From Uruburuella testudinis (GTDB lineage: Bacteria; Pseudomonadota; Gammaproteobacteria; Burkholderiales; Neisseriaceae): a stretch of DNA of 64,000 nt. Location of the stretch: assembly GCF_022870865.1 (NCBI RefSeq), contig NZ_CP091508.1, positions 2,852,001 through 2,916,000 on the forward strand, written 5' to 3'. Below, piece after piece: positions 38,944 through 39,955 of the stretch (the first letter of the stretch is position 1; each line of letters opens with the position of its first letter). The notes beneath the pieces were generated by a model. It ran no database searches and was not told where the DNA came from. It saw only the letters and a program-made list of their open reading frames with translations. A program made the translations under genes and the position numbers.

Positions 38944-39213
38944 ATGGCTGTTTTTAAAATTAAATATCAGGATCATGAGTTTGATTGCGCCGGCGATGAA
39001 TATATTCTGGATGCGGCAGAGAGAGCAGGATTGGAAATTCCCTATTCATGCAGGGCAGGCTCATGTAGTACATGCACCTGCTATTTACTTAAAGGTGAAG
39101 TAGAACAAAGCGATGGTTCTTTCCTTGACGAACAACAGCAGAACGAAGGTTATTTTTCTGCTTGTGTTGCTTACCAAAAAAAGATTGCAATATTACCTAT
39201 GTCAATGATATAG
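38944..39213 (+). CDS. Plant-type [2Fe-2S] ferredoxin domain, 0 frame (probable N-terminal part of a frameshifted fusion)
   Basis: Codes for 89 residues starting MAVFKIKYQDHEFDC. Cysteines 36, 41, 44 and 74 are spaced CX4CX2CX29C exactly as in plant and cyanobacterial ferredoxins, in IPYSCRAGSCSTCTC; QSDGSFLDEQQ and SACVAY also match. In frame 0 it ends early (QKKIAILPMSMI). In the -1 frame the text instead reads QKKDCNITYVNDIDTF, which fits the final ferredoxin strand (compare SDCxIxTHKEEELF). The real protein is therefore probably ferredoxin domain plus the C-terminal region up to 39539. AGGG is 6 bases before the ATG. Base composition is AT-rich, unlike neighbours. Confidence 0.75.
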   Translation: MAVFKIKYQDHEFDCAGDEYILDAAERAGLEIPYSCRAGSCSTCTCYLLKGEVEQSDGSFLDEQQQNEGYFSACVAYQKKIAILPMSMI

Positions 39214-39539
39214 ATACTTTCCCTACTAAAGGAAAATGGGTAGCTATTGATGTTGATTATGATGCCATTAAGGACACCGCCATGATTGCAGCCCAAGGGA
39301 TAGCGCATGCAGAAGAAGGAAAATTTACTTTCTCTGACCCTAGGGCATATATAGGCACAACCAGGACAATTACATTAAGATGGGAACCTCTAGAAATATC
39401 AGATATGGCGTTTGATGATTTTGAACGCCATCCGTTGGGAACCATAAAAACTGTGCGGCAAAAGTATATTTACGGCTCGGATGAGCTCGCGGGCGGTTTC
39501 TCTTATTATTGGTATCCGCATGCAGGAGGTGGCTATTGA
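39162..39539 (+). CDS. C-terminal domain of unknown function, -1 frame of the ferredoxin gene (candidate effector domain)
   Basis: Open in the -1 frame from 39129 to the stop at 39537-39539. It has no ATG before codon 41, so it is best read as the continuation of the ferredoxin gene from 39183 (118 residues). After the last ferredoxin strand come GKWVAIDVDYDAIKDTAMIA, GKFTFSDPRAYIGTTRTITL and a C-terminal YYWYPHAGGGY. I do not recognise a family. The next gene starts on the stop codon (TTGA overlap) and its AGGAGG lies inside this frame, which argues that this frame is translated. Confidence 0.55.
   Translation: MCCLPKKDCNITYVNDIDTFPTKGKWVAIDVDYDAIKDTAMIAAQGIAHAEEGKFTFSDPRAYIGTTRTITLRWEPLEISDMAFDDFERHPLGTIKTVRQKYIYGSDELAGGFSYYWYPHAGGGY
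39176..39183 (+). promoter_or_regulatory. A7G tract with slippery heptamer A-AAA-AAG at the frame change
   Basis: Seven A residues then G. Read in the ferredoxin frame, the codons are CAA AAA AAG, so the heptamer A AAA AAG (39177-39183) is in the register used for -1 frameshifting, as in dnaX. A -1 shift here would join residues 1-80 to the 118-residue downstream frame and give a 198-residue protein. No strong internal ribosome-like stimulator or downstream hairpin was seen, so slippage in transcription, phase variation, mutation or a homopolymer base-calling error remain possible. Confidence 0.5.
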
Positions 39540-39955
39540 AAACAAGGCAGTCTTTATTTTATAAACTATTGGCGTGTTTTGATATTTTTGCTGTGGCATG
39601 GGTAATTTTCCCCTTTTCCGGGAAATACCCCTTGATATGGCAGCAATTCCGGCAAATTGAAAAATTATCGCGAGACTTCGCACCCTTTGGCACAGGTTTG
39701 TATATTTTATTTGCTGCTGCACTGCTGCTTTATGCCACTTTACTTTTTTCAGCCAAGCAGTTGTGGCAGCAAAATCCGCGGGTTTGGAAACTGGCATTGA
39801 TACAGCTGCCGCTGCGTTTGATTGCCTCAACCCCCAGCATCCCTTTTCTGCTGACATTGGTGCTGCCGTTGGGCGCTTTATTTGCCTATCCGGTTTGGCT
39901 GGCGGTGGAAATCGGCAAAATTTATGCTTTGCGGCGTTGGGCCAAACATGGATAA
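39536..39955 (+). CDS. Small multi-pass membrane protein, possible immunity partner
   Basis: A 139-residue protein with about four hydrophobic segments (LLACFDIFAVAWVIFPF, GLYILFAAALLLYATLLF, IPFLLTLVLPLGALFAYPVW). I set the start at TTG 39536: AGGAGG at 39523-39528 is 7 bases upstream, and the TTG overlaps the TGA of the previous frame, so translation is coupled. No ATG is available at a sensible place. The family is not recognised. Tight coupling behind a possible secreted ferredoxin-domain protein suggests an immunity or secretion partner, but this is inference. Confidence 0.6.
   Translation: MKTRQSLFYKLLACFDIFAVAWVIFPFSGKYPLIWQQFRQIEKLSRDFAPFGTGLYILFAAALLLYATLLFSAKQLWQQNPRVWKLALIQLPLRLIASTPSIPFLLTLVLPLGALFAYPVWLAVEIGKIYALRRWAKHG

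What the first reader, a model, noticed from the sequence alone, without database searches (positions are those of the whole stretch)
38944..39955. Ferredoxin-domain protein with an unknown C-terminal domain and a coupled membrane protein: candidate ferredoxin-type bacteriocin/effector and immunity unit
Seen: a plant-type [2Fe-2S] ferredoxin domain (CX4CX2CX29C), then in the -1 frame the ferredoxin's own last strand (DCNITYVNDIDTF) followed by ~100 residues of no family I know. A 139-residue multi-pass membrane protein follows, starting on the stop codon. Known: pectocins use an N-terminal plant-type ferredoxin domain to enter cells through a TonB-dependent ferredoxin receptor, fused to a killing domain and paired with an immunity gene. 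Inference: this may be a neisserial counterpart with a new toxic domain. I did not find the colicin M or pesticin catalytic motifs, and a housekeeping or electron-transfer role is not excluded.
Basis: partly seen in the sequence, partly recalled or inferred. Interest (0 to 1): 0.85.

Follow-up and report, generated by a model that had tools for sequence, protein, structure and literature searches.

The report
Ferredoxin-headed bacterial toxin with membrane immunity
A Neisseria-type genome carries what looks like a small weapon against other bacteria, a plant-type ferredoxin 'key' in front of a toxin module otherwise found on spear-tip proteins of Pseudomonas and relatives, next to a membrane protein that probably protects the maker; the toxin part is out of frame, so it may be worn out or made only by a ribosomal slip.

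Summary
38944-39213 is a plant-type [2Fe-2S] ferredoxin. The frame behind it, 39222-39536, belongs to a toxin-like family with no match over a curated cut-off in Pfam or NCBIfam. A profile of 22 relatives hits this frame alone among 908 in the window (E 9e-17); a profile of their downstream membrane proteins hits 39536-39952 alone (E 5e-9). The two genes are adjacent in 22 of 22 relatives. Toxin carriers there: type VI VgrG (11), PAAR (1), an unnamed Pseudomonas domain (9), one cut by a contig end. So this is a toxin/immunity-type pair with a swapped head. A second locus in the same genome joins the same ferredoxin type to an unrelated tail with its own immunity-like gene, so ferredoxin acts as a reusable head. 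No TssC was found and the only VgrG-family hit looks like prophage; pectocin-like uptake is likeliest but untested. Against an active weapon: the toxin is out of frame at an A7 run, half of 26 family-invariant residues differ, and all four neisserial ferredoxin loci of this kind that I read are disrupted. An in-phase A_AAA_AAG slip site keeps recoding open. The structure server was busy at all 21 tries.

The parts
38944..39213 (+). plant-type [2Fe-2S] ferredoxin domain, frame 0; probable cell-entry (receptor-binding) head
   Evidence: PF00111 E 2.1e-21, TIGR02008 100 bits; PDB sequence matches to plant and algal ferredoxins and to pectocin M1 (residues 1-83 on 1-84) and M2 (1-80 on 1-81)
39177..39183 (+). 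A_AAA_AAG heptamer in an A7 run (39176-39182): point where the frame changes by -1
   Evidence: downstream RNA fold z -0.55
39183..39221 (+). last ferredoxin strand (DCNITYVNDIDTF) read in the -1 frame
   Evidence: translation; its likeness to the ferredoxin C-terminus is by eye
39222..39539 (+). toxin-like domain, -1 frame, ~100 aa, with stop codon
   Evidence: HMM of 22 relatives: only hit of 908 frames, E 8.8e-17; Rahnella relative E 1e-13; no match in Pfam, NCBIfam, PHROGs or PADLOC
39536..39955 (+). 139-aa multi-pass membrane protein, probable immunity protein; TTG start overlaps the toxin stop (TTGA), AGGAGG upstream
   Evidence: HMM of 21 relatives: only hit of 908 frames, E 4.8e-9; Rahnella partner E 5e-10; same NTGA overlap in 16 of 22 relatives
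39971..40007 (.). inverted pair of neisserial uptake-sequence cores (GCCGTCTGAA / TTCAGACGGC), probable terminator shared with the facing gene
   Evidence: the uptake-sequence name is recalled, the terminator role is inference (not among the sites)

Best explanation
The locus is a ferredoxin-headed antibacterial toxin with its immunity gene, acquired as a cassette between two conserved chromosomal genes (named mnmG and rsmG by eye). The head is a plant-type ferredoxin that would let the released protein pass the outer membrane of a competitor through a ferredoxin or other TonB-dependent receptor, as in pectocins. The tail is a small polar toxin-like domain that Pseudomonas, Stutzerimonas, Rahnella, Marinobacter and others carry on or behind VgrG, on PAAR or on another head. 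The downstream multi-pass membrane protein protects the producer, which suggests that the toxin acts from the periplasm at or in the inner membrane. In this genome head and tail are in different frames, so the toxin is either inactivated by a recent frameshift with immunity kept, or made at a low level by -1 slippage at A_AAA_AAG. Shown: domain identities, pairing, modularity. Inferred: toxicity, immunity, entry route, site of action. Step probabilities: toxin/immunity pair 0.9; ferredoxin as delivery head 0.75; receptor-mediated uptake rather than another route 0.55; functional product in this strain 0.35.
For: Profiles of relatives single out both window frames. The pair is conserved in Rahnella (31% and 34% identity) and adjacent in 22 of 22 loci. 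Toxin and partner identities run in parallel (Mantel r 0.84, 0 of 2000 permutations, 22 pairs). VgrG or PAAR carriers in 12 of 22. A second ferredoxin unit in the same genome, head 59% identical over 70 residues, carries an unrelated tail that 7 other of 83 Neisseriaceae genomes also encode; the five of these that I read have other N-termini (by eye), and its downstream gene matches an immunity-like gene of one relative (E 8e-7 over 47 residues). Ferredoxins over the TIGR02008 cut-off are rare: 2 of 399 genomes in the order sample and 3 of 369 in the class sample, own included in both. TssC not found in the genome; the one VgrG-family hit lies in what looks like a Mu-like tail operon (by eye). 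The insertion site is variable: about 103 bp between the flanking genes in G010 and 561 bp in G026.
Against: No continuous gene. Only 13 of the 26 toxin positions identical in all 22 relatives are kept, against 9 of 12 in the partner, which fits decay. The four neisserial loci of this ferredoxin kind that I read are all disrupted (own two, G024, G016). No structure could be predicted. No ferredoxin receptor was looked for. No ferredoxin was found by tblastn in the 22 relative loci, so this head-tail pairing is seen once. The toxin domain has no recognised catalytic motif. Neither killing nor protection was tested.
Confidence: 0.6

Rival explanations
1. Inactivated cassette kept for its immunity gene: the toxin is a recent pseudogene and only the membrane protein is under selection, protecting against neighbours that deliver this toxin by type VI secretion.
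For: Frame break; toxin invariants half lost while partner invariants mostly kept; the four neisserial loci of this ferredoxin kind that I read are all disrupted; partner homologues without a detected toxin in G012 and G030.
Against: The -1 frame is open for 125 codons without a second break and the break lies exactly at an in-phase slip heptamer, a phase found in 4 of 67 AAAAAAG in long frames. The divergence may only mean a distant branch: 20 of the 22 relatives are from Pseudomonas and near kin.
Confidence: 0.45
2. Programmed -1 frameshifting: a short ferredoxin and a ferredoxin-toxin fusion are both made from one gene, keeping toxin dose low.
For: A_AAA_AAG in the right phase and direction; the -1 frame is family-conserved coding sequence; the partner start overlaps the toxin stop.
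Against: No stimulatory structure in the 88 bases folded (z -0.55). The second ferredoxin unit also has a -1 shift but at a C5 run, where slippage is not expected (judgement from recalled rules). The heptamer could not be checked in a close relative, none being found.
Confidence: 0.3
3. Assembly error: a homopolymer undercall, the gene being whole in the living strain.
For: Both own ferredoxin-toxin genes are shifted by -1 at homopolymers.
Against: 50 A7 runs lie inside open frames of 300 codons or more (some may be antisense) in 482 kb of this genome, and in the listing of a noisy frameshift scan I saw by eye none at such a run; that scan also missed the window case.
Confidence: 0.15
4. Type VI secretion effector: ferredoxin is a loading domain for VgrG, Hcp or PAAR.
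For: The same toxin domain sits on VgrG or PAAR in 12 of 22 loci; many Neisseria have such systems (PMC10210955, passages).
Against: No TssC hit in this genome (E. coli control positive, no neisserial control); no ferredoxin found in the 22 loci.
Confidence: 0.15
5. Housekeeping electron-transfer ferredoxin with an unrelated gene behind it.
For: The ferredoxin domain keeps all four cluster cysteines. Other Fer2-domain hits that I read in neighbours are reductases or stand-alone ferredoxins.
Against: The downstream frames are a toxin/partner pair; plant-type ferredoxins over the cut-off are rare in the order sample.
Confidence: 0.07

Closest known systems
Pectocins M1, M2 and P (ferredoxin-containing bacteriocins of Pectobacterium)
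   Same: N-terminal plant-type [2Fe-2S] ferredoxin followed by a C-terminal toxin module; the ferredoxin aligns from residue 1 with pectocin M1 and M2; immunity gene listed for them in PMC5821083 (passages)
   Different: Toxin is not colicin M-like (no PF14859 match, no DXYDX5HR motif); partner is a multi-pass membrane protein, not Cmi; host is Neisseria-like; toxin is out of frame; receptor unknown
Specialised VgrG and PAAR effectors of type VI secretion
   Same: Same toxin domain and same partner family
   Different: Ferredoxin in place of VgrG/PAAR; no TssC found in this genome
ColM-family pseudocins with PmiA immunity
   Same: Toxin module with a four-helix membrane immunity protein (PMC5821083, passages)
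   Different: No ColM motif and no ColM family match; immunity families not compared directly
MafB and other neisserial polymorphic toxins
   Same: Modular heads, exchangeable C-terminal toxins, linked immunity genes in Neisseria (PMC9263626 passages; MafB papers seen in search listing only)
   Different: No MafB head in the Pfam and NCBIfam scans of the two ferredoxin units; ferredoxin head instead

Membership tests
Ferredoxin-containing bacteriocin (pectocin type) | N-terminal plant-type ferredoxin domain | tested here: met
[quoted passage not shown]
   no Pfam match; motif absent in 23 of 23 members of alignment A3
Ferredoxin-containing bacteriocin (pectocin type) | one continuous reading frame from ferredoxin to toxin | tested here: not met
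Ferredoxin-containing bacteriocin (pectocin type) | uptake by FusA-type receptor, inhibited by free ferredoxin | not testable with these tools
   needs killing assays; no receptor search was made
Type VI secretion specialised effector | toxin fused to VgrG, PAAR or Hcp | tested here: not met
   window head is ferredoxin; 12 of 22 relatives meet it
Type VI secretion specialised effector | type VI secretion apparatus in the genome | tested here: not met
   PF05943 no match; PF05954 one match, in what looks like a prophage operon. Two markers only, E. coli but no neisserial positive control
Polymorphic toxin system | same toxin module on different heads; same head on different toxins | tested here: met
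   heads; second ferredoxin unit; frames as they lie, both own units broken
Polymorphic toxin system | linked cognate immunity gene | tested here: inconclusive
   linkage met: adjacent partner in 22 of 22 relatives, parallel divergence; protection itself not tested
Polymorphic toxin system | toxicity to bacteria | not testable with these tools
   needs expression tests
Programmed -1 frameshift | in-phase slippery heptamer | tested here: met
Programmed -1 frameshift | stimulatory downstream structure | tested here: not met
   z -0.55; some sites work without one (recalled)
Programmed -1 frameshift | slip site conserved in relatives | tested here: inconclusive
   no other carrier of this toxin among 83 family genomes

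The most novel reading that the evidence does not exclude
A ferredoxin-guided bacteriocin family exists in Neisseria, in which one reusable ferredoxin head is joined to different toxins shared with type VI secretion and other systems, with the toxin dose here set by ribosomal slippage; it would be the first genetically defined bacteriocin type of the genus and would point to protein-ferredoxin import by neisserial outer-membrane receptors.
Probability: 0.2. Interest if true: 0.85.

Novelty: new variant of a known kind. Interest (0 to 1): 0.62.

Why it matters
Ferredoxin-headed bacteriocins are described from Pectobacterium, Brenneria and Dickeya (PMC5821083, passages), and a 2022 review states that no neisserial bacteriocin had been genetically and biochemically characterised (PMC9263626, passages). 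This locus makes both points testable. It also links a toxin/partner family without a Pfam or NCBIfam match over the cut-off to four kinds of head (VgrG, PAAR, an unnamed Pseudomonas domain, ferredoxin), suggesting toxin traffic between contact-dependent and possibly diffusible weapons.

Tried and rejected
Rejected: colicin M type toxin (no family match, no motif). Pore former with its own hydrophobic hairpin: highest mean hydropathy over 19 residues is 0.63 for the window toxin and at most 0.81 in 22 relatives. Phage origin of the toxin: no match in phage records or PHROGs (window proteins only). PDB relatives by sequence: only chance-level hits for the toxin profile (E 0.47 and 1.1), none for the partner profile.

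Weak matches dropped: membrane protein to DUF2157 (E 0.022) and DENND11 (E 0.46), both under the Pfam cut-off; one Pseudomonas relative to DUF382 (E 0.069) and to daptide_RRE (E 0.008, 15 bits against a cut-off of 150, over the toxin region); G392 and G178 at E 0.006-0.008 in the order search; a fifth Rahnella record with 41% of the toxin.

Controls on other ferredoxins: G733 and G623, over the cut-off, are stand-alone ferredoxins in metabolic settings by eye. Of nine further Fer2-domain loci given to a script, five read as reductases (L008, L012, L013, L021, L042), two as stand-alone ferredoxins (L029, L044), L020 printed only its antisense frame and L041 nothing. None of those read is a toxin-like fusion. 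The 97 plasmid records (40 listed) were not examined for fusions.

Led nowhere: a codon-usage Viterbi for frameshift errors was noisy, listed mostly gene junctions and antisense, and did not flag the window case. The first genome-contig scan with the single window protein found nothing (27 pattern matches, none confirmed); the two-sequence alignment found 22 loci of 68 pattern matches. Plasmid tblastn with the second unit's tail found nothing. Literature searches listed no paper whose title or abstract start describes a ferredoxin-toxin fusion in Neisseria; the library holds open-licence PMC papers only.

Full report
What is there. The window lies in a 2.95 Mb one-contig genome. Frame 0 from 38944 encodes 89 residues of plant-type ferredoxin (PF00111 E 2.1e-21, TIGR02008 100 bits against a cut-off of 81.15). 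At CAA AAA AAG (39175-39183) the similarity passes to the -1 frame, which carries the last ferredoxin strand (by eye) and about 100 further residues and stops at 39537-39539. A 139-residue membrane protein starts with TTG on that stop (TTGA), with AGGAGG just upstream.

Relatives of the two downstream parts. Searches with the window proteins gave no match over a cut-off for the toxin frame or the membrane protein in Pfam, NCBIfam, PHROGs and PADLOC (the membrane protein has weak DUF2157 and DENND11 matches at E 0.022 and 0.46), and one PDB hit at E 0.44 for the toxin. Plasmid tblastn found 4 of 72,556 records, all Rahnella, overlapping the end of a type VI vgrG. In the one I read (L002) the next gene is a membrane protein too. 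Toxin and partner both match the window pair (E 1e-13 and 5e-10). There the vgrG frame ends in TGA exactly where the toxin similarity starts, in the same frame.

A two-sequence alignment of the toxin (A2) then found 22 loci out of 68 pattern matches in the 84,980-species collection: 20 Pseudomonas, Stutzerimonas or Serpens, one Lysobacteraceae assembly, one Marinobacter. Carriers: VgrG in 11 (nine whole: L063, L066-L071, L074, L084; two partial: L064, L083), PAAR in one (L072), an unidentified N-terminal domain in nine (L073, L075-L082; in L082 it lies in a separate frame), and one cut by the contig end (L065). Eight of the nine unidentified domains were compared (not L078) and are one family, all pairs below E 1e-7. 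A partner lies directly downstream in 22 of 22 (21, L064 by tblastn at 57% identity). Toxin stop and partner start overlap as NTGA in 16 of 22. In a sample of the class, one of 339 other genomes has the domain, at the end of an 845-aa open frame that reads like L074.

Test against chance. I rebuilt profiles without the window rows and searched all 908 open frames of 40 or more codons in the window. The toxin profile (22 sequences) hit one frame, 39129-39536, E 8.8e-17. The partner profile (21 sequences) hit one frame, 39485-39952, E 4.8e-9. Identity matrices of toxin and partner correlate (r 0.84; 0 of 2000 permutations reach it; 22 pairs, window included, L064 left out because it is not in A4). 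This says that they travel together; it does not prove protection.

Ferredoxin as a head. The same genome has a second plant-type ferredoxin (L015, P0007; 59% identical over 70 residues), the strongest TIGR02008 hit of the order sample (148 bits). Behind it come an Ig-like stretch (weak PKD_6 match, below cut-off) and a ~170-residue tail. That tail occurs in 8 of 83 Neisseriaceae genomes, own included. In the five relatives that I read (L159-L163) the N-termini are not ferredoxin by eye (G070 and G075 not read). A signal-peptide-like gene follows on the same strand in three of the five (L159, L161, L163); in L160 and L162 the nearest such gene, lipoprotein-like, is on the other strand. The own 142-residue neighbour matches one of the L159 genes (E 8e-7 over 47 residues). 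So one genome shows the same head on two unrelated tails, and each tail has other heads elsewhere. Plant-type ferredoxins over the cut-off are rare: 2 of 399 genomes in the order sample and 3 of 369 in the class sample, own included in both. Of the three other genomes, G733 and G623 hold stand-alone ferredoxins in metabolic settings by eye; the sense frame of G293 was not read. Seven further Fer2-domain loci read are reductases or stand-alone ferredoxins.

Entry route. Pectocins M1 and M2 carry a ferredoxin head that acts as receptor-binding domain (PMC3302902, abstract and one section); for M1 piracy of FusA is reported (PMC5821083, passages). The window ferredoxin aligns from residue 1 with both. 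No TssC was found in this genome and the only VgrG-family hit lies in what looks like a Mu-like tail operon. Receptor-mediated uptake is therefore my first choice, but no receptor was sought and type VI absence rests on two markers. A membrane partner argues for action at the inner membrane; four-helix immunity proteins also protect against ColM bacteriocins of pseudomonads (PMC5821083, passages), so a pore is not implied. The toxin has no hydrophobic stretch.

Is it alive? Against: two frames; 13 of 26 toxin positions identical in all 22 relatives are changed or missing in the window, whereas the partner keeps 9 of 12; the second unit is also shifted by -1, at a C5 run near its start; G024 has a ferredoxin in pieces and G016 a truncated one. 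These four, the best four hits, are all disrupted. For: the toxin frame is otherwise open; the break sits on A_AAA_AAG, a phase seen in 4 of 67 AAAAAAG heptamers within frames of 300 or more codons (some of these frames may be antisense). No stimulatory fold was found (z -0.55). An assembly error is possible but less likely (50 A7 runs inside long open frames in 482 kb). I give recent inactivation 0.45, recoding 0.3, error 0.15.

Site. The unit lies on the opposite strand between genes that I name mnmG and rsmG by eye. Among the rsmG loci of 29 relatives, the mnmG end was within about 1.5 kb in 2 (G010, about 103 bp; G026, about 561 bp). Of 18 larger stretches (G010 and G026 among them), mnmG was reached in 5: besides those two, G036 and G049 at about 1.9 and 8.8 kb, and G053 at about 8.5 kb in the other orientation. 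G036 has there a P-loop NTPase-like gene (by eye). The toxin was found in none of the other 82 family genomes. The partner family was found in two others, without a detected toxin.

Filing. It works like a polymorphic toxin with a pectocin-like head. It is not a pectocin (toxin type and continuous frame tested and not met) and not a type VI specialised effector (head and apparatus not met). Hence: new variant of a known kind.

Noticed in passing
L015 7115-8772 (-), own genome 281-283 kb: Second ferredoxin-headed toxin-like gene with Ig-like stretch and a 142-aa probable periplasmic immunity gene; its ATG and its ferredoxin are in different frames (C5 run).
   Followed up: partly
L002 12001-12790 (Rahnella aquatilis plasmid pMEM40-1): TGA exactly at the junction of VgrG and the toxin domain, same frame; read-through, internal start or inactivation.
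   Followed up: partly
L073, L075-L082, N-terminal ~110 aa: Unidentified Pseudomonas N-terminal domain (MDKLVRRRELRKEDL..) carrying this toxin; no VgrG or PAAR recognised by eye in the ORFs listed around it. Possible new delivery domain.
   Followed up: partly
L156 1435-1953 (G012) and L157 1495-1968 (-) (G030): Homologues of the membrane partner lying between an ABC ATPase and a permease gene that look like mlaF and mlaE by eye.
   Followed up: partly
L017 4398-5266 (-) (G024): Ferredoxin in pieces directly behind a small enzyme-like ORF (..GVAGHNFIAVLTPEGNVIHELNG..), near a lipoprotein-like gene.
   Followed up: partly
L016 9037-9336 (-) (G016): First half of a plant-type ferredoxin joined to an unrelated tail, behind a nuoF-like gene; probably a deletion remnant.
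   Followed up: no
L117 8381-9865 (G036): P-loop NTPase-like ORF at the same mnmG-rsmG site; the site seems to collect accessory genes.
   Followed up: no
L164 (own genome 1.03 Mb): Mu-like prophage tail operon by eye, the source of the only VgrG-family hit.
   Followed up: no
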